NCBI RefSeq assembly: GCF_019649055.1
Contig: NW_026570238.1
Span: 248,001 to 312,000 of the forward strand
Source of the DNA: Paramacrobiotus metropolitanus
Lineage: Eukaryota; Tardigrada; Eutardigrada; Parachela; Macrobiotidae
Length of the DNA: 64,000 nt
Direction: 5' to 3'
Part shown: positions 11,784 to 36,639 of the stretch, in pieces
Layout: each line of letters begins with the position of its first letter
Position numbering within the stretch: position 1 is the first letter of the stretch
Notes under the pieces: model-generated
Told to the model about the DNA's origin: nothing
Databases searched by the model: none
The model's input: the letters and a program-made list of their open reading frames with translations, nothing else
Translations under genes and position numbers: made by a program

Positions 11784-12510
11784 TTTCTAATACGAAAAAA
11801 CTGTTCAGATGTTGGAAAGGCTAATAATGATCACCGAAACGTGAAGACCCACAAAAATTAATGCCTGGGTTCTAGCTGCATGCAGATCAGCGTACTTGGT
11901 GAAGTACGCTCAGGTTTACCGGATGAGACGAATTTCGTTGATGTCGCTGCAAAGCAAAAGTTTTCGGTGCGCAAATTTGAGTTGACCTGTTTCAAGTCGT
12001 AGGCTGTCCGCTCTCGCTGGTAGGTTGTGGCGAAGCCTGACGATAAAGGGCGCAAAACCCATTCCAACTTGAACTTTACCAGTACCGGGCCTACCGGCAG
12101 ACGGCGGCAATATGTACAAGTACAACGTAATAAAATTAATATTCTCAAAATATATTTTTTAATACGTAAATTTCACAAGTTTGTGTTTTTGTCAGTTTTT
12201 CAATTTGTAAGTTAGAACATCACGTGCGCTACTTGGAGATTTTATTTTTATGTTCTCGAATTCGTCAGACAGAGGCGCCCTTCTCATGAGCCTGGGGATA
12301 AGGCCCCTCCGCAAGCACTTACCTCCGCGCTGAAGGCTTAGTTCGGAACCGTAGTATTGCGTTGCGGAAAGTACTAGTAGTATTGCGCGAGATCCTGTGA
12401 AGTAATTTTCTGATTTTTATCGAGACTTATTTGTTGATCATGTTGTTTTAATTTATCGTTTACATCTTAGAGTTTTGGAACATCGTATTGCATTGCATAG
12501 TTTTTCAAAG
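11784..12510. other. Bidirectional upstream region between eL43 and TACO1
   Basis: The two genes are divergent here, so both promoters should be inside this 0.7 kb. A GC-richer block at about 12270-12360 is the likely promoter or 5' UTR side of the plus-strand gene. Open frames at 11858-12215 show no recognisable protein. Confidence 0.4.
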
Positions 12511-13434
12511 ATGTCCGTAACTGCATATGTCGGACATCACGGGATATATCCTCTGAGAACGGCTATCTTTGTTAAGGATGTTTTACGGTTTTGTCGCTTC
12601 TCTAAACATTGGAACTGGACGGCGATCCCCAACACATTATCTAGTCACCCATCGCAACTTGGTACTTTTATCACAGTGTCAAGGCATTTCTCTTTGACTT
12701 CTAAATGTGATGCGGGACATAGTCACTGGAAGAATATACAGCACATAAAAGGAGCGAACGATGCACTGCGAGCTCAGAAAATGAATCGACTTGTAAGCCA
12801 AATGCGAATTGTTGCGAAGACTCACGGATCTTTTGATCCTAAGCAAAATACTGCTCTTGCGAAGCTGATTGAAGCTGCGAAGGCCGACAACCTTTCGACC
12901 GAAAGGATCAAATCAGTGTTAGCTAAAATGGCAGCTTCTAAAGATACGCGGGCAACTCTAGAAATGAAAGGACCAGGAGGTGCGCTGATGATTGTGGAAC
13001 TTATAACTGATAATGCTGTCAAAACGAAGCAGGAACTAAGAAGTACTACGAAAAAGTTCCCCATTCAGTTTGTGGATGGTGCAGCTGCAAGTGGAATCAG
13101 GTTCAACTTTGAAGAAAAAGGTATTGTGACTGCTGTGATGAAGAACGGGAATGCCGATATGGGGAAAGCAGAGGAAGATGCTATCGAAATCGGTGCGGAG
13201 GATGTGGAGGAGGGCAGCAGTGCTAATGAGATAGTTTTCTTATGCGAACCCATGGAGTTGAACAATGTGACTAAAGGTGTGGAACAGAAAGGATACACTG
13301 TTCTGGATAGCGCAGTCGAATTTTTGCCCAAGCAGATAATTCAACTAGATGAGAATGCGAGCGATATTTTGAACAAATTCCTTGATATAGTAGAGCAGAG
13401 AGATGATTTCTCAAAGATTTACCGAAACTGGTAA
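12511..13434 (+). CDS. TACO1: Mitochondrial translational activator, TACO1/YebC family
   Basis: YebC/PmpR-family protein; the mitochondrial member supports translation of COX1 mRNA. It is a single exon of 307 codons if started at the ATG at 12511; the frame opens at a TTG at 12475, which is not a likely eukaryotic start. About 70 N-terminal residues are basic, Ser/Thr-rich and acid-poor, as expected of a mitochondrial presequence. The signature GHSHWKNIQHIKGANDALRA follows, then the AKADNLSTERI and GPGGALMIVELITDN blocks. The usual internal insertion near IEIGAEDVEEG and the C-terminal lobe ending FLDIVEQRDDF are present. A polyadenylation signal AATAAA lies at 13727-13732. The lack of introns contrasts with its neighbours. 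Confidence 0.95.
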   Translation: MSVTAYVGHHGIYPLRTAIFVKDVLRFCRFSKHWNWTAIPNTLSSHPSQLGTFITVSRHFSLTSKCDAGHSHWKNIQHIKGANDALRAQKMNRLVSQMRIVAKTHGSFDPKQNTALAKLIEAAKADNLSTERIKSVLAKMAASKDTRATLEMKGPGGALMIVELITDNAVKTKQELRSTTKKFPIQFVDGAAASGIRFNFEEKGIVTAVMKNGNADMGKAEEDAIEIGAEDVEEGSSANEIVFLCEPMELNNVTKGVEQKGYTVLDSAVEFLPKQIIQLDENASDILNKFLDIVEQRDDFSKIYRNW

Positions 13435-16861: not shown

Positions 16862-19800
16862 ATGCAAGTAAAAAGTGCAGTGGCGCAAGTGCCTCCACCC
16901 GATGGAGGTTTTGGATGGGTTGTGGTGTTTGGATCGTTTCTCATCCACGTGGTAGCCGACGGTGTCACATATTCCTATGGAGCCCTATTGCCCGTTCTTC
17001 TCGAAGTGTTCAAAGGCGGCGAAGCGGCTACGGCCGCGGTGGGCTCCACGCTGTTTGGCATCACGCTTTCTGTGGGTATGTTCCAATGGTTTTCGTCAGC
17101 TGGTGTGCACATGCACTGGGATATTTACTATTTCGAAATTTTGCTTTATAGGACCAATAGCCGGGGCTCTGGTTAATCGGTATGGATGTAGGATAGTTAC
17201 CGTGGTTGGAGCGGTAATAGCCACCGCCGGTACCTTAATCAGCTTGTGGTCGCCCAATATTGCCTTCATGATTGTTTCTTTCGGCCTCGTAGCAGGTACT
17301 GTACTTACACTTCGTCTCATTTGTGGCGTTGATGTTAAACCTAAAAACAGCATGTGCCAGTTTTCGTCATTCAGTTTCTTTGTTAACTGTATGCCTTTAT
17401 CTGATTTTGAGAATCACTAGAAATTTTGTTTGGCTATTTTGAATTTGTAGAAGGGTGTCTTTCGAACTGAGTGACTGGTAATAATTATATCGTTGAATAT
17501 AATTGACAGCTGGTAAAATTTGAAATTCTCCTGCTAGGATTTGGATTTGGTTTAATTTATCTCCCAGCCATCGTTAGCGTTACGCAGTGGTTTGAGAAAA
17601 AGCGAGCCTTTGCAACTGGCATTGCTGTCTGCGGATCTGGAGCCGGAACGTTTATTTTCTCTCCGCTGTCGAAGAAACTGGTTTATATGTATGACTGGGA
17701 TGGAGCATTGTTGATCATTGCTGGCATAATCTTCAACTGCTGTGTTTTTGGTGCACTGTTCCGCCCAGTGGAATACAACACGGTGGCCACCGTTACGACC
17801 GTCCAGGATGAGGAAACCAACTCGAAGACTGAAGTGGTTGAATTATCGGTGCGTAAGCACAAAATCAGCACCAGCAGTCTAAAAGACAAGTATGGAACCG
17901 GTGCTGCGGAATTGCGGCCGTTGAGTGCGTCGAGTATTGCCAAGTCGGATACTCATATCCATGTGCCGGATGGTCCACGACCTGGAAGAATCTCGCCTGG
18001 TACAGAGCCGCATTCGTTTCTGAGACAAACCAGTTCATCTGAACGAATGTCCCATGGGCGTTCACGGTCCCGGCTGCGCTTGGAAACAATCGGAGTCGAA
18101 GGTATGATGTTTTAATTTGGTTACAGTTTTTTTGTCTATTCGATACTCTCTGCAGCCGTCTGGTGATAATTTCTTCCGCTTTAACAATGTGATAATAATG
18201 TTTTTTTTCGATATGGTATCGTTATGGACCATATATGGGCTTTTATGTTGGCCTCGATTGTTCGCTGACTGTTAGTGCATGAATGTGATTTCGGTGCATA
18301 GCATCGCTTGATCGGTTTTGTATTTGGTTCATTATTTCTAGCCGAGTGCGTTTAATGAACAGGCATTTGTGTAAAGCTTCGCTGGCAGATATAATTTTCT
18401 CGATTATATCGTTTTAAAGGCAGTTTGTAGTTGCTGATTATATGAACCTCTTGCAGGAGAAGTAACCGACGTGAAAGAAGTGGAAGTTCCTCCATTGGCT
18501 CATCGTGATGCTCTATACACTGGTTCTCTGGCAAACATTGCCGAGTACCGTGATAATCCTGGAAAATTCCGGGAGAGTATGTTAGATATATCCAAAGCGG
18601 TGGTAATTAACTCATCGGGCGATCTAACCTCGATCGACGAGACACCTCAGCCAGAAAATCTGTCGGCATGGGGCAAGGTGAAAATTGCTGTGAAGGAAAC
18701 GCTGGACCCGGCGTTGTTAACGGATTGGGTGTTTTTGTATTTTACGGTTAGCAACTTTTTGACAAGTTTAGCCTTTCAAGTCCCGTACATCTTTCTTCCG
18801 GATCGAGCGGAAAAAAACCTTGAAATTGAAGGGGAAGATGCTGCATTCTTACTGTCCATTATTGGTCTGGCTAATATCGCCGGAAGGCTGATATTTGGCT
18901 TCCTGTCGGATCGACCGCAGATTAACCGGTTGTGGTTGTACAATGGAGCTGTGACTATTGCTGGAGTGGCCATGTGCCTCAGCGTTTGGTGCCTTAATTA
19001 TGCGATGCTCGCAACATTCGCCACAGTTTTCGGTTTATTTATTGGTATGAACATGCCTTTCCTTTAAGGTTCCATTTTCAACTGAAATGCTGCCTCTTAT
19101 AGGTGCCTTTGTTACGCTTACGTCGGTTATTTTGGTGGATTTGTTTACTCTGGAGAAGTTAACCAATGCATTCGGGATTTTGCTGTTCTGGCAGGGTATT
19201 GCTTCCTTCATCGGGCCTCCACTAGCAGGTTCGGTTTTATCTGATTATTATTTGTCGACCAGATAATCTCTCATCTCGCCGAATGCTTCTTAATTACAGT
19301 ATATTGCTTCTACGACTATTAACTTTGCGATGTTTATAAGCTGCTACCAGCCTACCACTAAAGTAAAGTTTGTAAGGGCTTACCATTAGTAGCGCTTGTG
19401 GAGTTGAAATTATACGATCGCAGTTTTATTTTATTTCGTGAAATTAGTGGTTTGCGTGGTATACCAGAAATTAAATTAAATTTGAACCATTTTGAACATA
19501 TCTCAGAGGTCTATAAAAGTTATGTCTTTGCTGGTTTTGCACCTCGCGTTTTTTACCGGCGATGACACGAGATCCATTTGCAGGCATACTGAAAGAAAGC
19601 TCAGGCAACTATGACTCAGCATTCATTGTGTTCGGGATTATGATGGCCGTGAGCGGGGCAATGTTGTTCTTTATCCCTTTCATACGAAAGGGAGAAAAAT
19701 CATTTAGATCCCGCCGGCACAAGGACCGAGTGGGTGCACTCGTGCCGACCAACGATAAAGCTAATGGCCGCGCTAATGCTCAGAATGGGACTCCCGCCGA

Positions 19801-19921
19801 ACGCAGCGTCTTGCTGGAAACGGATAGACGGAAGGAAACACCGCATGAGATTGTCGTGCCAGCCATTGTAATCAACGACAGCAGCACGTTGCCGGCAACT
19901 GCCGCGGAAATTACTGCCTAG
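16862..19921 (+). CDS. Monocarboxylate transporter-like MFS protein (SLC16 family), intact copy
   Basis: Plasma-membrane major facilitator of the monocarboxylate porter family, moving lactate-like acids or related substrates; the substrate cannot be told from sequence. Six exons: 16862-17075, 17152-17295, 17538-18101, 18457-19044, 19103-19228 and 19584-19921. Every junction is in phase 1, giving 657 residues. The N-terminal family motif PPDGGFGWVVVFGSF is in TM1, and WFEKKRAFATGIAVCGSGAG is the TM5 motif. A long hydrophilic loop (about residues 225-390, Ser/Arg-rich) separates the two six-helix halves, as in SLC16. The last TM is in the final exon, followed by a charged tail of about 80 residues. 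Exons 3-6 and the 3' flank are the left arm of a large inverted duplication; exons 1-2 are unique to this copy, which is therefore the functional one. Confidence 0.9.
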
Positions 19922-21341
19922 AAAGTCCTGGAAATTGCCTTAGAGGTTTTGTTGTTGTTGTTGTTGTTGTAACCCTAATTATTTCACTCCTTCTGAACTG
20001 ATGCGTCAAGAATCAACGCTACGATGCTGTGATTTTGTTAACCTTGGTGTTTGTGGTATTCCGTGTAGCATAGTACTAGTTTGGTTGATTTGGGAATCCA
20101 ACGTTTACGCCTTTACGGGTACGATAATGCTCTGTGTGCAAATCAAAATGACGGTTTTGTTATTGATGTTAATCATATAATTTCGAGAAAGTTGCATTTT
20201 GCCTTTTTTGATGTGATCCTTTGCGTGGTTTTCCATATTATTACAACATCGTGCTGGACAAAAATAAGTTTGCAATGAATTGTTGGCTTCTGGAGATTGT
20301 TGCAGTTTCGGAATTTTACATATGATTTTATTATAATGCCAGTCAGTACCAGTAGTCTTTCCCGTTCCCAAAAACTTCCCAGTGTTTATTCAACTTTGTA
20401 AATTTTTTTTATCCATGTAAATCGTGTTAGAAGAATGGTTATTTTTCGAACTGATTTTCTTGGCATGCCGCATGGGCTGTTAAAATTAATTTCAAACAAG
20501 TAAATGCTGTAAACTGTAGTTCCGTGTTTCTACACTTTTCAATTGCAAGGTCTAAATTGCTTGAAATTACTGTAGCTGCAGCCACGGCTTTTGTAATTTT
20601 CAAAGCAATTTTGCGCATCCGTGCAGGTATCCGGGTTTCAGATGCGCATTTATTGGGAAAATATTTTTCGAACCACCTAAAGGGGCGTTCTATTGTGGGG
20701 GGGGGCTATAATTCGATAATTACGGTATAGAAGTACGTCTTTTTGCTAGTTAAGCAGCATGACAGCGAAAACCGCTACGGTAGTCGTTCCGCGTAGATTT
20801 TCCCAGGCCAACCAAATGTTGTAACCAGCGCATCAGCGTTGATTTTTAAGGCACGGCCGGGAGTAGAATTTTGGATCCAGATGATGCCACACAGCGCGCC
20901 GTTTTTGTACATGCACCGCCAATACAACCTTTGCAATTTTGCACGCAACGCAGCAAAAAAGGTTGCCTCTCTATTTAAGTATACATGATTTTTGACAGAA
21001 TTTCTTTTGCTTTCTAAAAAATTTTCATAACATAGCCTAAAAAAATTTTCACCTTAATTTCGGCAGAGTGCGCCATTCGGTGATTAAAAGCCATACATAT
21101 ACTGATATACAATTACCGTCACTGCCGGCTGCGAGATGAGAATATCGGCTTGGAAATCCAGACTGCGCATTTTCTTTTAACGGAAAAGAATAAACCGGAA
21201 CTGATTAAGATTACGGTGGTTATGAAAGCCATGCCCATGTTCTCTGCCATGATGCAATGTAAATTTTACGAGAATACCGATACGCAACACGCACGCTGGG
21301 GAGATAAGTTGACCAATCTGGAATAGGATGGAGTGGTTACA
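17505..21341 (+). repeat. Left arm of a large inverted duplication
   Basis: This segment recurs in reverse complement at 27272-33865. Matching blocks are about 17505-20325 with 31035-33865 (transporter exons 3-6 plus the 3' flank) and about 20733-21341 with 27272-28045. In this arm the two blocks are only about 0.4 kb apart; in the other arm they are about 3 kb apart. Homology stops abruptly at GGAGTGGTTACA (21330-21341). Coding parts are nearly identical; non-coding parts are visibly diverged with small indels. Confidence 0.9.
21060..21341 (+). pseudogene. Decayed copy of the unknown terminal exon at 27.2-27.7 kb
   Basis: Reverse-complement match to the open exon at 27230-27544. The shared stretch reads ELIKITVVMKAMPMFSAMMQ in both copies. 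This copy has lost about 50 bp (after the IGLE codons, near 21150) and has TAG at about 21324-21326 where the other copy has a Tyr codon. Homology ends before the normal stop, so it lacks the last residues as well. It cannot encode the full exon. Confidence 0.8.
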
Positions 21342-21468
21342 GGCTCACATGGCTTCCGGTCGTCGCTTAATCGTATGGTTCCACCGCCCTAGGGTGGCGC
21401 GGCGGCGCTAACTATGGAATGTGGCGTGGCCGCGTGGGCCAGGCTGATGTTCGTGAGTGGCGTACGTT

Positions 21469-21511
21469 CGTGCTGCAGTGTAGTGTGCAGTGCACACTAC
21501 ACTGCAGCACG
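21469..21511. repeat. Perfect inverted repeat, 19 bp arms and 5 nt loop
   Basis: Arms 21469-21487 and 21493-21511 are exact reverse complements (left arm CGTGCTGCAGTGTAGTGTG); the loop is CAGTG. It lies about 130 bp beyond the end of the left duplication arm and about 190 bp upstream of the zinc-finger start codon. It could be a small structured element, a regulatory palindrome, or a scar linked to the rearrangement. Confidence 0.95.
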
Positions 21512-21698
21512 CTTATTTGCTCACCTACAAAGCTGAATATTTCAAAATTAAGATTCACGTTACTACAGTACTTATCACTTATCGTGACTTACGTAACTTT
21601 TCAGAACTTATCATTTAAGTCTGCAATTCTGCTCGTACGGAAGTTGTAGTATCATTGTTTTGTTTTCTTCAGAGTCAACACAAACATTTACGGACGCC

Positions 21699-24269
21699 AT
21701 GTCCGAGACGACTGTGTTACCATCTTCCGAGAATGATTATGATAAGGAAATCGCAGAAAACTTGCCGACCTGCATTTCGCCTTCCATCGACCGTATATCT
21801 GACAGCGATTATGGTTCGTCATCAGCCAAATCATCGCCAGAGGCAGCTACCAGCCGTTTGAGCCAACATCCTTTGCAGAGTGTTAAGAAAGAGAAGCCAC
21901 AATCGAAAGTACACTGGAATCATAAGGAGCACACTGATAACGTCTTGCCAGCTCCGGTGCAGGTGAAGAGCTGTAATGCGCGCGTTGCTGTACACTTTTA
22001 AATGTGTGAATTATTTGTTTTGGTTTCTTGAAACTGTGATTCGCAGGTTACGTTTTAGGAAATGTCGTTTTCTAATTTTACAAACAATAGTATACTAGGA
22101 ACGTTTTGGTTTGGTTGTATTAAGGGAAACACTACATCGGTCTTAAGTCTCGTGACGTTCCAGTACATTCTCCTTTAACCCAAGGGGGGATGGAGATTTT
22201 GGTTGTTCTTTCATTATTTGAATTTTAGCAGTAAAGTAGTGAGTTCGAGTTTGCACTTCATGATATTTTGATGGCTATTATCTAATAATGTTGTTCTTGA
22301 AACAAGAAACTTTCATTTTAGAAATTCTGTGCAGCGTTGAATAGACCCGACGACAGGACCAGAAGGCTGGCGATCAGCATCCCCGACAAGATCGTCATTC
22401 GCAAATCGGAAAAAACTGGCATCAGTCACGTGCTGGTGATGGGTACCGTTGATGTGAGTAATTATGCTAGGAAGCGCAATGTGATTTGATTAAGTGCTAA
22501 GTGCAGGCTGTCTGGCGAATTGCATACTTCAGTTTGTTTCATTGAATTTCAGATATAAATTTATTTATTATCTTTATTATAGTCTTTATATTTCTGTCTT
22601 TATAGAGGCTTTCTGAGGCTTTCTGTCTTTATTATATAATTTTGACTTACCAGTTAGTCTAATTTTCTCATATAATAGTTATATCAATGCTCTTGTTTAT
22701 GCAGTTCATCCTAGATCCACTGGCGTGCCCGTTCGCCAAGCAGACGGAGGCTTGCAAGGGCTTCTTCGCGACGGCCCCGCACTTCCTTGAGGCGCATCTG
22801 GAGGCCAAGCACGCGCTCAAGAACGTTATCCTCAACTTTGTGTGCCCCTGTCCGGCCAAGTGCAACGACGGCCACAGCTGCCCCGAGGTGCGCTTCGATC
22901 CCGGCGACATGCACATGTTGGCGCATCTGCGCAGCTGCCACAGGAAGTACTACGAGGTTATGCGTTTGGCCTTGCTGTCGGCTGAACCAGAACCCGGCCT
23001 GGATCCGCAGCGAGCACAGGTGAGGCGCACAGCGCGGATAGACTGTGAATGATTGCCTATTAAAGGGAATGCCTAGTGATTGCCTACTGTCCCGATGAGC
23101 ACCTGAGCGTCGCGCTCTATGATAGTTACCGACCGAATAACTAAACCATACAAGCAGACAAGCTGGTAGCCTGGCGCTGGTTACCGATTATTTTGCCATG
23201 CATACCTGCTTGACACTTACTTTACAGAAGCGTCTCTACTTCCGACAGCACGCCCGTCGCCTCTACTTTCCGGCGTGGACGCACGACAAGGACCGGCTGT
23301 TTCCCAGTCAGATCATTCCCGACAAGATCGTCATTCCCGCGGAAATCGACCAGGTGTGTATAAGTACTGAGTAGCAAAGCGTGTTGAAGTGGTGCCCGTG
23401 CACTAGTCAATTTGTTTATTTCGTGTAGAACGGTGTAATAAAGTACACCTGCAAAATCGATCCCTGCAGCCGCACTCCTATCGGCGATGGCGGCCCGTAC
23501 GCTGCTTTTGACCTACACATGCACATGTTGACAGAGCACGGAAAACAATACGACATGTTCACCAGCTTCTTCCACGAATGCCCGGTAACGTTTATAATAC
23601 GAACTTCCAGAAAAATTCATTATCTGGAAGGACGTCCACTACATTATACAAACACATGACCTGGGCTGTATCTGTAGGGTTGCGGAAGGTTGATAAATGC
23701 TGTCGACAAACAACTGGAATCTCACGTGAAAGCGATGCACGAAGAGCTATTGCGGAAAGGAAGAGACTGCATCAAGTACTCTGAGCAGGCCATGAAGGTT
23801 TGCTACTTTTTCCGTTTTTGGTAGCTGGGAGGATGCGTTCACGGGGTACTCGTATGCTTGCAGAATCTGAAAGCGCTGGAAGACCGAATTCCCGCCGCCG
23901 TTATCGGTGAGGCCATCACCAACGGCTTGCAACCGAGCGACGGCAGCAAAGGAACCGCGAAAATGTACCTGCAGCGTTATACCTGTCCTATGAAGGTATG
24001 CCTGGCAGACTTGAAAATCTGTACTTATTATGGCGTTTGTCTTGTGCGTACATTTACAGATTACTTAACGTGTATTTGTGTAGCCGTGCGACAAAGTGTT
24101 CCTGGGGGACGGGTGCGAGCGCGACTACATGGTCTGGCACATCCGGGCCGATCATCGGGATGACTGGAATGTGGCCACGGATGCGCTTGTGAAGGCTCCA
24201 AAGGTAACAGTGTGCACTTGCAATCTGCAGTATGACAGCTCACGAACGCTCAGATTGCTTTTGCAGTGA
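21699..24269 (+). CDS. Uncharacterised multi-C2H2-like zinc-finger protein
   Basis: Not a protein I recognise. Exons: 21699-21962, 22322-22453, 22705-23019, 23228-23353, 23429-23584, 23678-23797, 23864-23995, 24084-24203, then a final exon contributing only the stop TGA (24267-24269). All junctions are phase 0 and the product is 455 residues. Residues 1-88 are acidic/Ser-rich and disordered. After that come repeated atypical Cys/His units: CPF..CKGFF..H..H in the third exon, CPCPAKCNDGHSC..H..H, YTCKIDPCSRT..H..H, and YTCPMKPCDKVFL..H..H spanning an exon junction. The spacing between Cys and His pairs is longer than classical Krueppel fingers. The phrase IPDKIVI occurs in exons 2 and 4, so the gene grew by internal duplication. 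The third exon is clearly GC-richer than its surroundings. It sits alone in the spacer of the inverted duplication. Confidence 0.75.
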
Positions 24270-27229
24270 TTCCCCGTGCTGGCTCATCTGTGCTTCCGGA
24301 TATACAACACCATCTGGTCGTGAATATGTTTTCTGGACCAAGAACGTGCTTTGCCGAGTTATCCTTATTTAGCTTTTCTGGTTTTTTATTTCAACAGGAT
24401 AGGCGGCCCTTCGCCGATCAGGGAACGCGGTTAGTTTCTCGCTGTCCATTTATTTGCCAGACGGCTCGTGCAAGTTCTTCACATTTTCGTTTTTTTCTAG
24501 CTGATCTCTCGCTCACTGTTTCTATAATGTTAAAGAAAGCACTGGAGTGAACAGGCTTAGAGGTAGTGCACAGGAAAAATTGTTTGCAACTACGACCAGA
24601 CGTGCTGAAAGTATCACCTAGTAGTAACTTAATTGTGAAACTGCAGAAGATTTATGGTTAGTTACGTTAACGTACAGTCATTTTCATTTCTCTTAAGATA
24701 TGGTTGAACCAAAATATACAGAATACAAGAAAAACCAACAAACAACTTAATCTCGGTCCGTTTTTCGCTCCTTTCACAGTCCCTGGGTAAAAATCGCTTA
24801 AAATGCTAACTGAACCAATAAATTTACTAAAATATTAACAAAGATAAAAATTAAGTTGTTCCATTGTGTCTTTATTAAAAATACATGTGCGCAAGATGCA
24901 ATGACGTATTTGATCACAGTGCATACGCTAGCTCAAACTTACGATTTCCCCAAAACGATCAGTCACCAAATAATAATACCGGTATTCACTATTCAGTGTG
25001 TACCGTGTAAAGTGCAAACCTAGCAAAGTCACTGTGGGTCAGTGGTTACAGTTCTGGTAAATTTGAAAAAATATTTCTAGCACCGGTAGGAATCAAAAGG
25101 ATGTTGTGTACGAAAAATTGTGTACGAAAGTAAAAATTGTGTACGAATAAATTCCCATCATGAAAAACTTAAGTACTTATAACTTACATCATTAACGCCC
25201 TGTGCATCAAGGAAGACATCCCTTTCCGTAAGCTGATATGAATTCCACGAACTTCAGTTGGCGCCGAACTCGATTATCAGGAAAAGTCACAAAGAGTTTC
25301 CAGCTGGTATCAAAGAGTATCAGCGGTTTATACCACGGGGAATGGCATAATATAAGTTCGCGGGATTTCTCCATACCAACGCCACATGTACATACGGTGG
25401 CCGAGTAAGGAAGGATTCCCAGGCCGTGGCCGAGAATTGTGGTTTTAGCTACCATGCAGTGTACTGTACACGAAATTGCCATTGCCGTCATCATTAATTT
25501 ACAGCAGAAACTTGTAAATTTCCCTCAGTACGCCTACTGCTAGCGTAAACCGGCCAGCGGTTATTTTGCCGTGTGTTAACATTGCAGTCGGAGTCGTTGT
25601 TTCCGTATAAAGCTCGACGCGATGCAGTTATTTCATTCGCGACATTCCCATCCATGCCGGCACCGAAATCGGACACTCCAGAGGTCAGCAAGCATCCATT
25701 CGCCTCCAAACCAATGCAGTGTTCAGTGTCAGAAGGGTGTTGTTGTAGCGCTTGTATCTACTGGATTTACTACGTACGGGAGCAACGGTATTCGGCGCGC
25801 TGTATGGAGGCGGCAGCGGTGAATGTGTCAAGAGTGAAGTCCAAATTCGGCCGCCAAGTCCAAAAAAATCTCCATTAACGAATCGCTAACCATAAGTGTC
25901 GTAGTGGAATGATCATGGAGCGTTTCGCTGGGTGAAGCGCTAACCGGGTAACGGTAACTAACGGTGCGGACACTAGTATTGACAGCATCTGTAGCGAAGA
26001 ATTCACGGCATATATAACTATAGGTCACCTGCGGGCGTAGTTCCCATTGCTACCGGCAGCACTCGCCGCGGCCAACGGAAGCCTGGGTTGAAGGTGGAAA
26101 TTGTGGCTAATGTTGAAGCCCACATCCGCTGTCAGATTACCCGCGGGGTAGTGATGGTTTGGAAGTACGACGGAAATCTTAAAATTCCCCGACAGAGATG
26201 CCCTGGCGCTGTGCGTGTCGCTGGCAGCATCGAAGCTCAGATTGATAATCATGAGATTACCCAGGGACGGTAGACTGTTCATATTGTCCAGGCCGTTGAC
26301 AGGGCAATTATTCGGGTTTGCCATGGGATAATACTCATTGCCCATTTGGCCGAGGGATGTAGAATTCGGGATGAATGGGCTGGTTGGTATCGCCTGCGTG
26401 GCGTACGTCGTTTCACGATGCAAGTACCTAGTAAAATAGTTCATAGCTGGAATAGTAAACTGAATTCATATATCCGGCAGCGGATCGCGGCAGACGGGGA
26501 CATTCGGAACCCGGTAGACGATAAAACCCTAAATTGCGATCATCGGCTGTGAGACCAAATACCGGCAGATTTGGAATTTCCACTTCTTGACACCCCAGTA
26601 CTCGATAATTTCGTCGACGGCTATCAACCACTGGCAGCGGAACCTCCACAATTAAGCGAAACAAATGTACACAGCATGAAGCGCAATTAATAAGCATTTG
26701 TGAGTACGGCGGCTGAAATGGATATTGCCCATATTACAGCGCTTGTCTCATCACAATCCCATACCCTACGCTAGTAGCGCTTTAACCATAGAAGTATACC
26801 GTGTGATATGACACAGCCATGTTCTGGATGATTATGCAAGTATCAATACTTTTGAAGTACTTCTGGTTAGCTGTATCACTGTTTTGAGGAACGTTCGTTA
26901 CTTACTTGCAAACTTACTTTATAATATTTAACGTGTTCCGTCAAATCGTTGCCAGCAGATGACAACTGGATAAGCATGCACTTATACACAGATAAATTAT
27001 GCGGTTCAGGAAATGAAATATCCGTATACAACCCTGTAAAAATGTAAATAAAATTCATTTAATTGTTTCGCTGCATCTCATTTAGACTCACAGTAAATAC
27101 TTCTAAAATTCTAAAATTTTGAACACATATAATACTTTCGAGTAGCGGAATCAGCGTTCAGTGTGACAGTGACACTGTGACAAGAAACGGCAAGTTCAAT
27201 TCACAAATGAAACAATAAAAAATGTTATT
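24270..27229. other. Spacer sequence with unrecognised minus-strand open frames
   Basis: Right part of the spacer between the duplication arms. Minus-strand frames at 25207-25494, 26025-26444 (Asn/Pro/Ser-rich) and 26428-26697 (VEVPLPVVDSRRRNYRVLGC) have protein-like composition, but they are in different frames and I could not build a clean gene. A tandem array of GTGTACGAA-containing units lies near 25104-25148. The sequence at about 26705-26745 resembles that at about 28203-28245 on the same strand (shared ACGGCGGCT and GATATTGC), suggesting related exons in this and the next block. Confidence 0.35.
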
Positions 27230-27544
27230 TCATATTATTTGCTGCTTTTGTACGACGATCGTTCCATCGGATGTAACCACTCCATCGTATTCCAGATTGG
27301 TCAGCTTATCTCCCCAGCGAGCGTGTTGCGCATCGGTATTCTCGTAAAATTTACATTGCATCATGGCAGAAAACATGGGCATGGCTTTCATAACCACCGT
27401 AATCTTAATCAGTTCCCGTTTATTCTTTTCCGTTAAAGGAAAATGAGCGGTCTTCCAGACACCCGTGTAGCTGAGCGCATTAGGATCAATAAACTTGGAT
27501 ATCTTTTCCAAGCCGATATTCTCATCTTGCAGCCGGAGTATTCT
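27230..27544 (-). CDS. Terminal exon of an uncharacterised gene
   Basis: I do not recognise the family. A minus-strand exon opens after a good acceptor (TTATTTTCCAG), continues through RLQDENIGLEKISKFIDPNA and ELIKITVVMKAMPMFSAMMQ, and ends at a stop at 27230, giving 104 codons with no disruption. An upstream exon candidate at about 27590-27670 reads PPGPNFDIVRHLMIKRHTYS before a possible donor. The 3' end lies just outside the inverted-duplication boundary (27272), so the final residues are unique to this arm. The broken relative in the left arm shows that this was once duplicated coding sequence. Confidence 0.5.
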   Translation of the reverse strand, partial: RILRLQDENIGLEKISKFIDPNALSYTGVWKTAHFPLTEKNKRELIKITVVMKAMPMFSAMMQCKFYENTDAQHARWGDKLTNLEYDGVVTSDGTIVVQKQQII

Positions 27545-28049
27545 GGAAAATAATCCTGAATTATCTGAAAGGTCAACGCTTCTCTGCAGCGGTTGTACCG
27601 CCAGTACCGGCTGTACGTATGGCGTTTAATCATCAAATGGCGCACTATATCGAAATTAGGGCCAGGTGGCATTCAAGTACGAGTAATATGGTAATTAGTT
27701 AATATATTGCCCACACCTTAACATTACTAACTTTTCATAAACGTATGCAGACCATGATGCAAAAACTTTTTAGAAGTCAAAAGAAATTCTGCCAAAAGTC
27801 ATGTGTGCTTGAATTGAGAGGCAACCTTTTTTTGTTGCGTTGCGTGCAAACGTTGTATTGGCGGTGCACGTATAAAAACGGCGCACTCTGAGGCATCGTC
27901 TGGAATTGTAGTCCCGGCCGAGCCTTAACAATCAACGCTGATGCGCTGGTTACAACATTTATTGATTGGCCTGGGAAAATCTACGCGGAAGAGCAACGAC
28001 CAGCTGTTTCCGCTGTCATGCTGGGTAACTAGCAAAAAGACGTATAAGC

Positions 28050-31030
28050 CCAGTGCAGTTAAAAGTAAATCCATGCAGCCGGAAAAGATTACGGAAAAAT
28101 TTTAGCACCCAAGAAGCGAGTGGATCGTAAAGCTGATGATAGAGCATCAGAAATCTCAGAGATACTAACACAAAAAGTCCCTTGTAATTCAGCGGCTGTA
28201 TATATACGGCGGCTAATCGATATTGCGGATATTCATGCACTTCAATACATCAATTCAAACTGTAGTATGAGGGTATTATGCACTTGAACAACACGCATCT
28301 GGATGGAAATCCATACAAGGTGCGTGTTTAAAGCCAACGCCGCATATAATTTATCTGATCCATCTCGGGCAAGAACTCTGGGATTGTGTATTCTGCTGGA
28401 GCCGTTCTGCTTAAATAAATATTCCACCTGTCCTAATTATAACAAATATATTCCTGACAACTTGTTCATAATATATTTTTATTCATAACACGACATTTCA
28501 TGCATGCCCCGACGAAAGAACCTTTGTAGCTTGTGGGTTTTGCACTGCGAACAAAAAATGGTGGTACAGAGCAGAATGTTGGAAACATAACATACTGTCT
28601 ACATTCTATAGAGTACATGAATTATGCAGAAGTTTATGGCACTTACAATTTCGATTAATTTTAAAGGTATGCCTCTGCAAGCAAATTCCTTGCCGATCTA
28701 TACACTGGTCCTTGATATACGCTGTTTATTATACTCGTACTACCTGGCTTTCAGAAAAGTTCAGCACATTCATCAGTAACAAATCATTCGCACCAAAAGC
28801 ATGAAAAGGAACTGACGATTCATCGATATGCGGATAAATGTGCGATTAGGTTTTGTTCTAAGTGATTAATATGACTTCATGATCTTTGTGACCTGGGAAT
28901 TACAAGCGTTCGGCTGGATAATTCAACGATCTGCTCATGAATCTTTACCGATTCGTGGTGCAGTCTGTCTAATACGATTTACATGGAACAGGACCATGAT
29001 GATCGACGACGGATAAGGAATAAACACTGTGTACTAAATTAGTTTAAAAATGACAAAAAATACTCCAACAGGAAGATTTACCTATACTACAGGGTCGTAT
29101 TAGATTGCGGATTTGAAGACAAAACAACGAATGCGAAAAGATAATTTGTCGTAAACTTAAAGAAAGTGATAATCAGATTCTCCAAATGCTATAAATTAGT
29201 TAATCGCATCAGTTATAACTAATTCTTTCAAGCAAGTACAGTAACAACTATTACATACAGTAACCCGGCCCATTACGTGTGAGCAAAAATCTGCTATGCT
29301 TTTGGTGCTACTTACTCGATAGGGATTGCCGGTCGCACAGTGAGATCAATTCTATACTGTAGAAACGAAAAAATACCATAGATAATCCGAACAAGCCAGG
29401 GATCAGAGAAGTCTTATCATTAAACAAAGGCAACACTTACCGTTTCATCCCTCTGGAGTTTAATGGTCAGCTGTTGCTCGAATCTTTGACCATCCGCCTA
29501 CCAAAAACTTACGGTTTTGAAAACGAAAGAAATAATGCGTTCAGAAGGGAAATTGTCATGTGAACTTTATAGCCGTTTAAACGAACCTTAAAATATATTG
29601 GTATTCCATCCGACTCTCTTTTAATATTGAACGTCAGTTTCACCGTTTTTCCCGCATAGCTCGCCATATATAGCGGTTCCCACAGGCTTAATACGGTGTC
29701 GACAATCCGCTTATACAGCAGATCCCGATGAGGAGATATCTGTGTATGAGAGGTGTAAAGATAATGGGAATTTTAATGCGGGTGAATTGGCTTAATCGCG
29801 CACTCAGACCATAAAGGTCGAAGGCCAAAAGGGAGTGCGTACACCTTCGACGGAACTGTTTCCAATATTCTCGAAGCGCTTTTACGATGCGATATCGGTT
29901 AGGATGATGGAAAAGGCACGAGAAAAAAGCAGAGCCGTCGTGTTGGTTACTTCCGGTGACAGTATGACTAAACAAGGGCTATTAAGTTTGCCGGCCGGGG
30001 TATACAAAGTGAAATGTGCCGCGGTATTCCCATGTCTAGCGACGTGATATCTACTTGGTATAATCATGCTGCGCCGTGCTGCATGTTGCACGCCAGACAA
30101 TTTAACGTGTCTCCAGCGTAGATCCGTTCTGCGCGCTGCATGCTAATGGAACCAATTGGCGAAGGAAGGGTTGCGGTATACACATTACAGCACTGTGGCC
30201 TTGTTATACGGGTGCCGCGGGAAGCCGGGACGGAGAGGATGGGAACGCAGGGAGGAAGCGCGACACACGTTGGCCGCTTGCTTGTTGCCAGATACGAGTA
30301 GATACACGGACCAAAAATTGCGGGACGAGATGTGTGTAGCATCACGTTCTGACTGCTGACAGACTGCAGTCTATACGGTTCCGCCGAAACCTTTTGATAG
30401 GCTTTGACAAGCAGCAAATGCGGTGTTGATTACTATGCACACTCAATTTGTGCGGGCCGCGGCTGCTCTGTACACGTAACGCCGACGAAAGGAAGAAATC
30501 AACTCTCCCGGAGTCAGCGCGCGAGCGCCAACGTGATGAGAAAATCACAATGTTTGGTTAACGTACGGTAATAACGAGCGTCTCTGTCCGTGTTCGAGCT
30601 GTGTTTATTGGTTGCCAGGGCCAAATTATAGGCAGATGGGAATTTCTGGATGGATCGCACACAGATATACGCACAGTGCGAGCAATCATTTCGCTCGCTC
30701 ATAGTGTACGTGCTTTGTTGAGAAAAACTCTCGGCCAACGCGATAGTATACTAATGATACCTAAAGCCAAGCTTGGATCGATCAAGCATTAATGAATCCC
30801 ATACAGACCGGCATCCGATCAGCGGTTGGTACGTGTGCACTCACTGCACTGTGCGCAGGCTTTGATGATTTCTTTAGCTTGTCGCTATTGCGCAAAATCG
30901 TTACATTGTGCCGGGGATGTTTACATTTAACTACGATTTGCAAGCGATTATGCAAATCAAGATAACCCTTGCAAAGCTGAAGTAACACTCCCCGAGTAGG
31001 AACTTTTTCGGAGGGGAAAGACTACTGGCT
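28050..31030. other. Arm-specific 3 kb block with unrecognised minus-strand exons
   Basis: Absent from the left arm. Minus-strand reading gives protein-like segments at about 29560-29750 (DLLYKRIVDTVLSLWEPLYM, then KTVKLTFNIKRESDGIPIYF), at about 29450-29520 (RFEQQLTIKLQRDET before GTAAGT) and at 28030-28427. They may be upstream exons of the gene ending at 27230, but the joins are unproven. A GC-rich stretch at about 30150-30520 could be a promoter. Confidence 0.35.
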
Positions 31031-31443
31031 GGCTTCTGCAGTAGCATAAAAATTTCAAAACTGCGACCCTGCAACAATGTCCAGAAGTCAACACTTCATT
31101 GAAAACCTCTTTTCGTGATGCACGATGTCGTACTAATATGAAAAACTACGCAAAGGATCACATCAAAAAAGGCAAAATGCAACTTTCTCGAAACTATATC
31201 AATAACAGCAATAACAAAACCATCATTTTGATTTGCAAACAGAGCATTATCGTACCCGTAAACGTTGGATTCCCCAAATCAACCAAACTAGTACTATGCT
31301 ACACGGAATACCACAAACACCAAGGTTAACAAAATCACAGCATCGTAGCGTTGATTCTTGACGCATCAGTTCAGAAGGAGTGAAATAATTAGGGTTACAA
31401 CAACAACAACGAAACCGCTAAGGCAATTTCCAGGACTTTCTAG

Positions 31444-33865
31444 GCAGTAATTTCCGCGGCAGTTGCCGGCAAAGTGCTGCTGTCGTTGATTACAATGGCT
31501 GGCACGACAATCTCACGCGGTGTTTCCTCCGTCTATCCGTTTCCAGCAGGACGCTGCGTTCGGCGAGAGTCCCATTCTGAGCATTAGCGCGGCCATTAAC
31601 TTTATCGTCAGCCGCCACGAGCACACCCACTCGGTCCTTGTGCCGGCGGGATCTGAACGATTTTTCTCCCTTTCGCACGAAAGGGATAAAGAACAACATT
31701 GCCCCGCTCACTGCCATCATAATCCCAAACACAATAAAGGCTGAATCATAGTCGCCTGAACTTTCTCTCAATATACCTGCAAATAGATCTCATGTCATCG
31801 TCAGCAAAAAGCGCGACATGCGAAACCAGCAAAGGCATAGCTTTAATAATTGCTTGAGACATGTCCAAAATGGTTCAAATTTACTACCAAACTATCAAAA
31901 TTAAAGGGATACCACGCTAGTCACTAATTCTGCGAAATAGAATAAAACTGCGGTTGTACAATTGCAAATTCTACCAGCGCAGCTACATCCTTACAAAAAA
32001 TGTGCTGTAGCGATAGTAAGTAAACTTGTACACATCGCAAAGTTCATCTTCGCACAAGTAATAACTAAGAAGCAGCTGGCGACATAAAGATTATCTAGTC
32101 GACAGATAATAATCAGATCAAACTTAACAAACCTGCTAGTGGAGGCCCGATGAAGGAAGCTGTACCCTGGAAGAACAGCAAAATCCCGAATGCATTGGTT
32201 AACTTCTCCAGAGTAAACGATCCACCAAAATAACGGACGTAAGCGTAACAAAGGCACCTAAAAGAGACAACAACTCAGTCGAGAAAGGATTCTTAAAGGA
32301 AAGTGATGTTCATACCAATAAATAAACCAAAAACTGTGGCGAATGTTGCGAGCGTCGCATAATCAAGGCACCAAACGCTGACACACATGGCCACTCCAGC
32401 AGTAGTCACTGCTCCATTGTACAACCACAACCGGTTAATCTGCGGTCGATCCGACAGGAAGCCAAATATCAGCCTTCCGGCGATATTAGCCAGACCAATA
32501 ATGGACAGTAAGAATGCAGCATCTTCCCCTTCGATTTCAAGGTTTTTTTCCGCTCGATCCGGAAGGAAGATGTACGGGACTTGAAAGGCTAAACTGGTCA
32601 AAAAGTTACTGACCGTAAAATACAGAAACACCCAATCCGTCAACAACGCCGGGTCCAGCGTTTCCTTCACAGCAATTTTCACTTTGCCCCATGCCGACAA
32701 ATTTTCTGGCTGAGGTGTCTCGTCGATGGAGGTTAGATCGCCCGATGAGTTAATTACCACTGCTTTGGATATATCCAACATACTCTCCCGGAATTTTCCA
32801 GGATTATCACGGTATTCGGCAATGTTTGCCAGAGAACCAGTGTACAGAGCATCGCGATGAGCCAATGGAGGAACTTCCACTTCTTTCACGTCGGTCACTT
32901 CTCCTGAAAGAAATTCATTTAATCAGCAACTGCACTACTGCCTTCAAAACGATATAATCGAGAAAATTTTATCTGCCAGCGAAGCTTTGTCGTTTAAAAC
33001 CCAAATGCCAGTTCATTAAACGCACTCGGCTAGAAATAATGAACCAAATACAAAACCGATCAAGCGATGCTTTGCACCAACATCAAATTCATGCACTAAC
33101 AGTTAGCGAACAATCGGGGCCAACAGAATGGCCCATATATGGTCGATAACGATGCCGTATAAAAAAAAACATTATTATCACATTGTCAAAGCGGCAGAAA
33201 TTATCGCCAGACGGCTGCAAAGATGTCGTATAGACCAAATTATAACATCATACCTTCAACTCCGATGGTTTCCAAGCGCAGCCGGGATCGCGAGCGCCCA
33301 TGGGACATTCGTTCAGATGAGCTGGTTTGTCTCAGAAACGAATGCGGCTCTGTACCAGGCGAGATTCTTCCAGGTCGTGGGCCATCGGGCACATGGATAT
33401 GAGTATCCGACTTGGCAATACTCGACGCACTCAACGGCCGCAATTCCGCAGCACCGGTTCCATACTTGTCTTTTAGACTGCTAGTGCTGATTTTATGCTT
33501 ACGCACCGATAATTCAACCACTTCAGTCTTACAATTAGAGTTGGTTTCCTCATCTTGGACGGTTGTCACGGTGGCCACAGTGTTGTATTCCACTGGGCGA
33601 AACAATGCACCAAAAACACAGCAGTTGAAGATTATGCCAGCAATGATCAGCAATGCTCCATCCCAGTCATACATATAAACCAGTTTCTTCGATAGTGGAG
33701 AAAAAATAAACGTTCCGGCTCCAGATCCGCACACAGCAATGCCAGTTGCAAAGGCTCGCTTTTTCTCAAACCACTGCGTAACGCTAACGATGGCTGGAAG
33801 ATAAATTAAACCAAATCCAAATCCTAGCAGAAGAACTTCAATTTTCACCAGGTGCTAACAAATTA
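31444..33865 (-). pseudogene. Truncated, frameshifted copy of the monocarboxylate transporter
   Basis: Exon blocks 3-6 of the intact gene at 16.9-19.9 kb recur here in reverse at about 33246-33830, 32310-32910, 32121-32257 and 31444-31777. Exons 1-2, with the start codon and the TM1 motif, are missing; homology ends near 33865. In the exon near 32121-32257 one base is lost (about 32219) relative to the intact copy, which shifts the frame in the second half. In the last exon another single-base loss (near 31535) replaces the tail with an early stop at 31490. One block also has two extra codons (Asn-Cys). Splice sites and most residues remain, so the copy is young or was homogenised by conversion. 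Transcription from the upstream gene on the same strand is possible. Confidence 0.88.
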
Positions 33866-33911: not shown

Positions 33912-34736
33912 TCAGTCATCTGCAGCGTACTCATTAGTCTGCATGGAATCATAAGAAGAGCTTGTGTTCTCATCAGGATCTGGTGTGTAATTTGAGCTTC
34001 TGTCATCATCCATAAAATCGGAGGCTCCATCGTCAAGGTCGTACGAAAAGTTGTCTTCTGCATCGGACATATCCAGCGTGTCATTCTGAGCGAGTTGATC
34101 CCAATATTCTTCATCCTTGTTCAGTCTTTCCAGGCGTGCCTTTCCCATGCCTACAACAGTCGGAAGCTGGTCCATGAGGCTTTGGTGCACGTAGCCGAGC
34201 CCAATGGAAAATGCCTTTGTTGTAACGTTCAGATCCCAGAATTTCAGGGGATAATCATATGCTTCGTTGGTTTTAACGGTTTTTTTTTCAACCGCAGCGA
34301 TTTCGTCATCATCTGTTGAATACAATCGGTATATCGGGCACTTCTTCTCGGCCAATTACATATACCAGATTGCCCACTGCAATCCGACACCAGAGGATCC
34401 CCACAGGCACTTCCAGTCATATCGGTTCAGGGCGCGTACCATGCGCTTATAGCGGAAACGTGCCCGTAATTGGTCTCCGATATCTTTACGGCGGTGATTT
34501 GCAAACAGCATGTCTTCACTGTTTCCGCTCACTTTTATAAAACCGCCCTTGCTCTCATGTAAATATATGGGCAGGAATTTGGCCATTTGGTGCTTTCCGC
34601 TGGGAGAAAGCATTATCGCTAAATCAATCTTTTCTGAAAGCGTAATCTGGTCATCTTTTTCACACAATTATCAGAATATTCCTAGCGAACTTACTTCTAC
34701 CAGCGTAGGTACATCAGATAGTAGTTCAGAAACAGC
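33912..34736 (-). CDS. Uncharacterised protein with acidic C-terminal tail; in-frame stop
   Basis: Family not recognised. Minus-strand reading begins in an exon at 34695-34736 (AVSELLSDVPTLVE, itself a continuation of something upstream), crosses a 48 bp intron, and continues from 34646 (ITLSEKIDLAIMLSPSGKHQ ... NRYDWKCLWGSSGVGLQW). A TAA stop sits at 34356-34358, but the same frame continues at once as LAEKKCPIYRLYSTDDDE and runs to 33912 through a Lys/Asp-rich part and a strongly acidic tail. No intron of plausible length removes the TAA. Either this is a pseudogene, a sequence error, or two products. The 5' end was not found. Confidence 0.45.
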
Positions 34737-36639
34737 CTGTAAAATGCCACCCTTTATGATTTTGACCAGTTAAGCGGCCCCAGTGAATCATTGGAGTGTA
34801 CCGTAAAATCTGCATCTTCGCCGTATTTCGATCCCTGTTCATCTTGCACTGCCTGATTAATCAGACACCATTGTTATTGTTTATTTTCAACCTTCGCAGG
34901 CAACTACAATAATTACAATAGCATTTAGTTATTTAACGATGTTTATAGTGCTGTAGTGGTGTAGTAATAAGTTCACAGTAGGCCCTCTCGGTGCGCACTT
35001 AAGGTGCTCTGTAACTTAAAAATTGCGTTTTCAGCTTTTAGTTTGTTGCTGCGTGCAAAGTTACGAATATTCTGTATCTTAAAGGAACACAGACAGTTCC
35101 GTTAACTTAAGAAATACTCTAAAATTTGAATCGGTTGGCTGGTTGGTTGAAAGTTTAAACCGAAATCGCACGCTGCTATTACCTTGAACAGTAGTAAATA
35201 TGCCTACTGAATTCAGTGGATTTTGAGCGATTCTGTGAAAACTTTCGTTATGATTGTCGAAAATTATTGTCGCATCTGCTTCATTTGTAACACGAAAACT
35301 TATAAATGATAGGGATTAGGGACACAGCTGCTGTGATAATAATACTAATCAAAACCTGCCATCAACACCGATATAAACGAAATGAACCTTCGGTGGCTAT
35401 TAATTCTAAAATTAATATCAAATTTAAAGCAATTTATTGAATTGGGATGAAGAACGGCAAGCGCTGCATATTGGGTGTGACGCATAGATTAGAAGCCGCC
35501 TGTTTTAGGCACAGCCTTATAGCAGTTTAATTTTCAAAGGCAAGGCCGAATCAGTATCGCATACATTTGCGCCGGTGCAGCCCGGTTGATGCTTATACCG
35601 TTCGTGATAGGGCTGTGCCTCTGTACGATGAGTGCAATACTTAAGAAAATCAGTGTGGACAGATCGGGAGTTTGGTACCAGTTTAAAAAGCCATGCTTCT
35701 ACTTTCCCCAAAGTGGCACTGCGGACCAACACCCAACAAACGATGCGGTACTGTTTGACCCGTTTCCTTGATCATTCCTTGGAACACAGCATTCGCGAAG
35801 GCCGAAGTAGGCTGTTCGACAGTATCATTGGCCATCGCGTTTAGAAATGATTCAGCATTCTCTGGAATTTCCAGGGTATAACCCGGAGCTGCCTATTTCA
35901 AGAAATCAGAATAAACTGTCTGTTTTTCGTTCCGATCTTGTCTACATACCAAATCGGGATCCATTTTGGATAAAATTGAACACCACAGGCAAAATGTACA
36001 GCTCAACCAGCAACGATACGGGGCACACTAATTCCACGAAACCCGAAAAAAAATAGCAGAATCTGCAACGGGACTTGAGAAAATGGAAAGCGCAGAATAT
36101 GCAAGTCATACGACACATGCCACAACAAACGGCGAAGGTCTTAAAGCTCTGTCGCCCCCCACCTCCTAACGGTGGAGGTTTTTGTTGCTTTTTTCGCCCT
36201 TTATGGTACGTAGTACGTACACAATTTATCCAATCCTTGCACAATGGTTCTTGATGAATTATAAAGGGCACAATTTTTGAATAAAGGCTTTACGTAGTAC
36301 TTGAAACCGTATTACGAGTCGACTCAGTTTTGTTAAGTACTTCTGGACATTTTTACGACTCAATGCAACTACTTATGCAAGACATGATTATTTTTCGTCT
36401 GATGACTTTGATCCAATATACAAGAATTCAGAATTCTTGCTCGAAATGTTTTTTTAAGTGGTTTTGTGTGGTTTGTGGCTTTTACGTGGCGGAAAAATTA
36501 ACGTGGATGAGACCTCTGTCTTTATACCGGGCGCGGCCTTTTGACCTACTTTTTAGTGTTTCATAAGTAACTTTTGCTCCTGACTGTGAATCCAAAAAAA
36601 CATATTACCGAGTGAGGAAAGTAAACTTTAAGAGATATC

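What the first reader, a model, noticed from the sequence alone, without database searches (positions are those of the whole stretch)
17505..33865. Large inverted duplication with reciprocal decay of its two genes
About 17.5-21.3 kb and 27.3-33.9 kb are reverse-complement copies in the same internal order, flanking a 5.9 kb spacer with a zinc-finger gene. The left arm keeps the working transporter but a broken copy of an unknown exon (TAG, deletion, lost end). The right arm keeps that exon open but a broken transporter (no exons 1-2, two frameshifts). Each arm has retained one of two duplicated genes, an instructive case of complementary loss. Such a palindrome could also drive gene conversion or inversion of the spacer.
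Basis: seen in the sequence. Interest (0 to 1): 0.75.

Follow-up and report, generated by a model that had tools for sequence, protein, structure and literature searches.

The report
Mirrored gene pair with opposite losses
A block with two neighbouring genes was copied in mirror image in what is most likely a tardigrade genome; one arm now keeps the working transporter gene and the other keeps the working cannabinoid-receptor-interacting-protein gene, an ordinary outcome of duplication made instructive because the broken transporter copy seems to have died only recently.

Summary
The inverted duplication is real: window 17507-21341 and 33854-27272 are reverse-complement copies (blocks 83-97% identical), 5,930 nt apart, and the only two copies found in the 169.8-Mb assembly. 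The transporter is MCT-like (SLC16-type). The "unknown exon" is the last exon of CNRIP1 (PF15043), and a whole 4-exon CNRIP1 gene lies in the right arm. Left arm: intact 657-aa MCT plus a CNRIP1 ruin. Right arm: intact CNRIP1 plus an MCT without exons 1-2 and with two 1-bp frameshifts. So the reciprocal state is confirmed and the genes are named.

The history needs correcting. Between the arms, MCT exon 3 and most of exon 4 differ by about 40 synonymous and 0 amino-acid changes in 352 codons. A copy dead since the split should show about 56 changed codons. The right MCT was therefore not broken at birth: it was under protein-level selection for about 95% or more of its separate history and was lost lately, or is still used. 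The left CNRIP1 seems to have decayed earlier. A 138-bp identical run in the 3' UTR suggests gene conversion. Spacer inversion could not be tested. If each gene loses one copy at random, opposite arms is a one-in-two outcome. Interest is modest.

The parts
16862..19921 (+). Left arm and flank: intact MCT (SLC16-type) gene; exons 16862-17075, 17152-17295, 17538-18101, 18457-19044, 19103-19228, 19584-19921; 657 aa
   Evidence: Open spliced frame with GT-AG introns; Pfam MFS_1 1.3e-46; best PDB matches are MCT2 and MCT1, E 1.5e-41 and 1.7e-41
17507..20379 (+). Left arm, outer block (31 bp of MCT intron 2 through exon 6 and 3' UTR)
   Evidence: 89% to 33854-30999 reversed
20734..21341 (+). Left arm, inner blocks: remains of CNRIP1 intron 3 and exon 4 (TAG, deletions, no exons 1-3, no last 13 codons or stop)
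21342..27271 (.). Spacer, 5,930 nt: about 21.6-24.5 kb has many diverged matches clustered on contig C24; 25.1-27.0 kb has a 73-76% paralogue on C39; no Pfam match for four ORFs tested
27230..29667 (-). Right arm: intact CNRIP1 gene; exons 29667-29587, 29497-29441, 29356-29316, 27581-27230; 176 aa
   Evidence: Pfam CNRIP1 PF15043 4.9e-35, positions 3-151 of 157; PDB 7q2t CNRIP1 1.4e-15; splice sites
31440..33823 (-). Right arm: broken MCT; exon 3 33823-33254, exon 4 32903-32316, exon 5 32257-32133 (1-bp deletion), exon 6 31776-31440 (1-bp deletion); exons 1-2 absent
30999..33854 (-). Right arm, outer block
27272..28044 (-). Right arm, inner blocks (CNRIP1 intron 3 and most of exon 4)
19957..20094 (+). 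138-bp stretch of the MCT 3' UTR identical in both arms (candidate gene-conversion tract)
   Evidence: 0 of 2000 permutations reach it; no Rfam family at gathering score, no unusual fold
33912..35900 (-). Right outer flank: broken gene of an unnamed family (10 matches in the genome, this one included; start approximate); in-frame TAA at 34358-34356
34698..35695 (-). About 1-kb repeated element inserted in that flanking gene; copies on C4 (identity rounds to 100%), C87 (99%), C332 (95%); 7-bp target-site duplication seen here and at C4 and C87, unclear at C332

Best explanation
A block holding an MCT gene and the CNRIP1 gene behind it was duplicated in mirror image, originally with both genes complete in both copies. 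Both copies stayed under selection for most of the time since. Then the extra copies were lost one at a time: CNRIP1 in the left arm (deletion of exons 1-3, exon-4 deletions, a stop, loss of the 3' end), and later the MCT in the right arm (loss of exons 1-2 and two single-base deletions). The arms still resemble each other enough to exchange short tracts by gene conversion. Shown: the arms, which copy is intact, the lesions, and the excess of silent changes in the right MCT. Inferred: that exons 1-2 were once present on the right, the order of the losses, and gene conversion.
For: MCT exons 3-6 between the arms: dS 0.162, dN 0.016, ratio 0.096. Exon 3: 22 synonymous, 0 nonsynonymous (23 listed); exon 4: no amino-acid change before codon 167. 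Simulating a neutral right branch of 0.081 gives a mean of 56 changed codons in the first 352, minimum 36 in 2000 runs, against 0 seen; 0 has probability 0.05 if only 5% of the branch was neutral and 0.003 at 10%. From the noncoding indel rate, about 7.6 indels would be expected in that 1,056-nt part on a neutral branch; only one in-frame 6-bp indel is seen there. The right-arm MCT splice sites of exons 3-6 are kept, by eye. The left CNRIP1 exon block has 5 synonymous and 4 nonsynonymous changes, one a stop, in 60 codons, with one more replacing change in the 32-nt piece beside it, i.e. longer relaxation. No other close copies of the arm stretches searched, or of MCT exons 1-2, were found.
Against: The two frameshifts and all 17 amino-acid changes lie in the last third (exon 4 from codon 167, exons 5 and 6): 40 silent / 0 replacing against 15 / 17, Fisher 4e-8 (hand counts entered; itself lists 14 silent there). 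Leaving out the C-terminal tail it is still 40/0 against 10/8, Fisher 2e-5, so a fast tail alone does not explain it. One uniform recent death fits less well than I would like: with 3-5% neutral time, the chance of two or more indels is 0.05-0.11 and of no replacement in the first part 0.19-0.06. No trace of right-arm exons 1-2 was found, so their former presence is an inference. There is no close outgroup, so changes cannot be firmly assigned to one arm.
Confidence: 0.66

Rival explanations
1. Part of the right MCT is still used: its exons 3-4 are expressed with 5' exons that are missing from the assembly, lie elsewhere, or are supplied by the left gene, or the two 1-bp deletions are assembly errors and the gene is whole in the animal.
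For: No amino-acid change in 352 codons with about 40 silent ones, while the last third has 17; splice sites kept; part of the 3' UTR is nearly identical. The published Paramacrobiotus TYO assembly used Nanopore with Illumina reads, haplotype merging and Pilon polishing (PMC8277472, passages), so single-base errors are possible.
Against: No second close copy of exons 1-2 found in the assembly. Without exons 1-2 the fragment cannot form a 12-helix transporter (from knowledge of the MCT fold). Several other open coding frames in the window carry no frameshift (for example 44421-46148, 12406-13434). The neighbouring gene is broken too.
Confidence: 0.12
2. Partial inverted duplication followed by one inversion of the spacer: the copy was truncated at both ends at birth (in MCT intron 2 and in CNRIP1 exon 4), and a crossover between the arms then swapped the inner ends, so that each arm got one complete and one truncated gene in a single step.
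For: It explains with two events why the homology stops in MCT intron 2 on one side and 13 codons before the CNRIP1 stop on the other, with the missing pieces in opposite arms. Partial or chimeric and adjacent inverted duplicates are common among young worm duplicates (PMC2728529, passages).
Against: It makes the right MCT dead from birth; exons 3-4 would then carry about 56 changed codons in the first 352, and 0 are seen. Outer exon 3 cannot be moved onto exons 1-2 by a crossover inside the arms (inference).
Confidence: 0.1
3. Assembly artefact: two haplotypes joined head to head by the assembler or by haplotype merging.
For: The published assembly of what is most likely this genome was made from about 3,000 animals and merged with HaploMerger2 (PMC8277472, passages).
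Against: The arms differ by 16% at silent sites; the left flank has no second copy and no similarity was found between the outer flanks or the inner edges; CNRIP1 exons 1-3 are found only on one side.
Confidence: 0.04

Closest known systems
Reciprocal loss ('divergent resolution') after gene duplication
   Same: Each duplicate segment keeps a different member of a duplicated gene set
   Different: Usually discussed between unlinked loci, populations or species (recalled); here both losses sit about 10 kb apart in one inverted locus, so no hybrid incompatibility is implied
Inverted GSTT2 duplication of African apes (PMC3375281; passages incl. abstract lines)
   Same: Inverted duplicate locus, one copy dying, gene conversion between arms
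   Different: One gene, copies 99.4% alike in humans, conversion spreads the silencing mutation; here two genes and much more diverged arms
Young C. elegans duplicates, often partial or chimeric and inverted (PMC2728529; passages)
   Same: Adjacent, inverted, structurally unequal copies
   Different: Those are young; here synonymous divergence is 0.16 and the unequal structure appears secondary for MCT
SLC16 monocarboxylate transporters
   Same: Left gene matches MCT1, MCT2, MCT8 and MCT10 structures in two stretches each
   Different: Substrate unknown; most of the long central loop does not align with the five paralogues examined
CNRIP1 (CB1 cannabinoid receptor-interacting protein 1)
   Same: Right gene covers profile positions 3-151 of 157
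   Different: One of three matches of the family without a stop inside in this genome; others on C3 and C37

Membership tests
SLC16/MCT transporter (left gene) | MFS domain, nearest solved relatives MCTs | tested here: met
SLC16/MCT transporter (left gene) | Proton-linked monocarboxylate transport | not testable with these tools
   Needs an uptake assay
SLC16/MCT transporter (right copy) | Complete open reading frame with both halves | tested here: not met
   Exons 1-2 absent, two frameshifts
CNRIP1 (right gene) | PF15043 over nearly its full length above the curated cut-off | tested here: met
   120.9 bits against cut-off 27
CNRIP1 (left copy) | Open reading frame with all exons | tested here: not met
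   Only part of exon 4, with TAG
Reciprocal loss after duplication | Two genes shared by both duplicates, each intact in a different one | tested here: met
Reciprocal loss after duplication | Both genes once complete in both duplicates | tested here: inconclusive
   Supported for MCT by the silent-change excess; direct remains of right exons 1-2 not found; weak for CNRIP1 (5 silent, 4 replacing)
Gene conversion between inverted arms | Tract much more alike than its surroundings with abrupt ends | tested here: inconclusive
   138-bp identical run, 0 of 2000 permutations, but it lies in a 3' UTR that may be conserved
Inversion-prone palindrome | Both spacer orientations in the population | not testable with these tools
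   One assembly only

The most novel reading that the evidence does not exclude
The right-arm MCT exons 3-4 are still translated in some transcript although the gene lacks its first exons, for instance joined in trans to exons 1-2 of the left gene on the opposite strand (compare Drosophila mod(mdg4), recalled), so an apparent pseudogene is an exon reservoir under full protein-level selection.
Probability: 0.04. Interest if true: 0.75.

Novelty: new member of a known kind. Interest (0 to 1): 0.32.

Why it matters
It is a compact case in which two linked duplicated genes returned to single copy in opposite arms, and sequence alone gives a rough order of the losses. It warns that a copy with missing exons and frameshifts need not be an old ruin: silent-to-replacing counts indicate it was a working gene until recently. 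It also gives two inverted arms of known genes in which gene conversion can be studied in what is most likely a tardigrade.

Tried and rejected
Partial duplicate dead at birth: rejected for MCT by the absence of replacing changes in 352 codons. Third copy or separate haplotig elsewhere: none found for the stretches searched. Hidden exons 1-2 in the window: none credible; outside the true exons the best tblastn matches are E 0.98 for exon 1 (10 residues at 36184-36155, right of the arm) and E 0.21 for exon 2 (14960-14895, on the left side). Structured or catalogued RNA in the identical 3' UTR stretch: nothing; Rfam best 18.2 bits against a gathering score of 60, folding no better than shuffles. 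Natural unevenness of constraint along this MCT: not excluded. By eye, at exon 5 codon 29 none of five paralogues has the left-arm residue and two have the right-arm one, so that late change may belong to the left copy; at exon 4 codon 180 one paralogue has each residue, which says nothing. I aligned five paralogous places (L014-L018) of about 22 listed outside C18. Attempt to fix the organism through a tardigrade SAHS protein failed: the one Lipocalin_7 match is an ordinary fatty-acid-binding protein. Literature: among the papers listed (8 of 87; 12 of 384; 4 of 4; 12 of 50; 10 of 160; 7 of 7; 6 of 6) none is, by title and abstract start, about this locus or about MCT/CNRIP1 duplication in tardigrades; that covers only the held open-access library.
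Full report
Setting. The window is positions 248001-312000 of contig C18 (1.59 Mb) of a 169,799,020-base, 533-contig assembly. The published genome of Paramacrobiotus sp. TYO, which I take to be the strain now called P. metropolitanus, has 170,483,395 bases, 684 scaffolds and a longest scaffold of 4,484,941 (PMC8277472, passages). A later paper gives 170 Mbp for P. metropolitanus (PMC11191345, passages). Contig C1 here is 4,484,719 bases, close but not equal. I therefore infer, without a sequence match, that this is that tardigrade. The published assembly used Nanopore and Illumina reads and haplotype merging.

The observation. Outer edges are 17507 and 33854, inner edges 21341 and 27272, spacer 5,930 nt. 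DNA searches of the genome with the whole left outer block and with the right arm from 27200 to 31000 find these two places and otherwise one 70-bp stray match. The left flank with MCT exons 1-2 has a single place. The tool warns that missing matches do not prove absence.

What the genes are. The spliced left gene gives a 657-residue protein with an MFS domain, whose closest solved relatives are MCT2 and MCT1. In the 3-kb stretch of the right arm that the left arm lacks I found CNRIP1 exons 1-3; the spliced 176-residue protein matches the family over positions 3-151 of 157 at 4.9e-35 and the solved CNRIP1 entries 7q2t and 6wsk. The genome has four CNRIP1 matches over the cut-off: C3, C37, the right arm, and the broken left one. 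Exon 4 of the right CNRIP1 uses a GAG acceptor in my model; that boundary is the least certain.

Lesions. Left CNRIP1: no match to exons 1-3, part of exon 4 with two deletions (one of 48 nt in frame, one of 52 nt net that takes the start of the exon), a TAG, and loss of the last 13 codons and the stop. Right MCT: homology starts 31 nt upstream of exon 3, exons 1-2 are absent, and one base is deleted in exon 5 and one in exon 6. So the reciprocal pattern stands.

How long were the copies alive? Over MCT exons 3-6, dS is 0.162 and dN 0.016. The changes are not evenly spread. Exon 3 and exon 4 up to codon 166 hold about 40 silent and no replacing change. The remaining roughly 180 codons hold 14 silent and 17 replacing changes and both frameshifts; one of the 17 is the codon next to the exon 5 deletion. 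If the right copy had been free of selection since the split, the first part should hold about 56 changed codons (2000 simulations, minimum 36). Zero is compatible only with neutrality for about 5% or less of that branch (P 0.05 at 5%, 0.003 at 10%). Indels agree: 18 events in 1,257 nt of noncoding arm predict about 7.6 in the first part on one neutral branch; a single in-frame 6-bp difference is seen. The right MCT was therefore a constrained gene for nearly all of its separate life. The left CNRIP1 block, with 5 silent and 4 replacing changes including a stop in 60 codons, differs from the MCT first part (Fisher 0.0006) and suggests an earlier loss, on small numbers.

A tension. Two frameshifts in a copy with so little neutral time are somewhat unlikely (0.05-0.11 at 3-5%), and lesions and replacements cluster at the 3' end even without the C-terminal tail (40/0 against 10/8, Fisher 2e-5). 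Possible reasons: weaker constraint there in both copies (one late change, exon 5 codon 29, may be left-derived against paralogues, by eye), one or both deletions being assembly errors, or continued use of exons 3-4. I rank recent loss first and continued use second.

Exchange between arms. Among 1,747 noncoding and third-codon sites, 234 differ, yet 138 in a row are identical at 19957-20094; 0 of 2000 permutations reach that. The stretch has no Rfam match at the curated score and no unusual fold. Gene conversion is likely, a conserved 3' UTR possible. Intron 3 (9% different) is also less diverged than introns 4 and 5 (21-24%). Nothing here bears on spacer inversion. A model of partial duplication plus one inversion would explain the opposite truncations neatly, but fails on the MCT substitution pattern.

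Surroundings. The right outer flank holds a gene of an unnamed family with 10 matches in the genome, itself included. It is broken by an in-frame stop where a paralogue reads on, and by a 1-kb repeat with close copies elsewhere and a 7-bp target duplication. The spacer holds stretches with many diverged matches on contig C24 and a 1.9-kb stretch with a paralogue on C39. I could not confirm the zinc-finger label.

Place among known things. Adjacent inverted and partial or chimeric duplicates are common among young worm duplicates (PMC2728529, passages), and an inverted duplicate with gene conversion and a dying copy is described for ape GSTT2 (PMC3375281, passages). Loss of different members from two duplicates is the known pattern of reciprocal loss. 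When each of two genes goes back to one copy independently, half of the cases will be reciprocal (inference). The finding is a good, well-resolved example of a known kind, with one loose end: why a truncated copy has kept its protein sequence so well.

Noticed in passing
34698-35695: About 1-kb repeat with copies on C4 (identity rounds to 100%, at least one difference seen), C87 (99%) and C332 (95%) and a 7-bp target-site duplication here and at C4 and C87; no ORF of 110 aa or more in it, so perhaps a recently active non-autonomous element.
   Followed up: partly
33912-35900, minus strand: Gene of an unnamed family (10 matches in the genome, three on C24), broken here by a stop codon and the repeat; no Pfam match for the two pieces scanned.
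   Followed up: partly
about 21600-24500: Spacer stretch with many diverged matches clustered at about 0.75-0.93 Mb of contig C24, where relatives of the broken flanking gene also lie; possibly a lineage-specific gene cluster.
   Followed up: no
21469-21511: Perfect 21-bp inverted repeat with a 1-nt loop, 128 bp inside the left inner edge of the duplication.
   Followed up: no
58007-58537, minus strand: 176-aa open frame rich in Lys, Ala, Glu and Asp with LEA_4, YtxH and apolipoprotein matches below the curated cut-offs; looks like a LEA-like stress protein.
   Followed up: partly
12406-13434: TACO1/YebC gene, open over both Pfam domains in one frame, left of the MCT gene.
   Followed up: no
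18300-18399: Second low-divergence stretch between the arms (3 of 100 sites differ) inside MCT intron 3; possible further conversion tract or conserved intron element.
   Followed up: no
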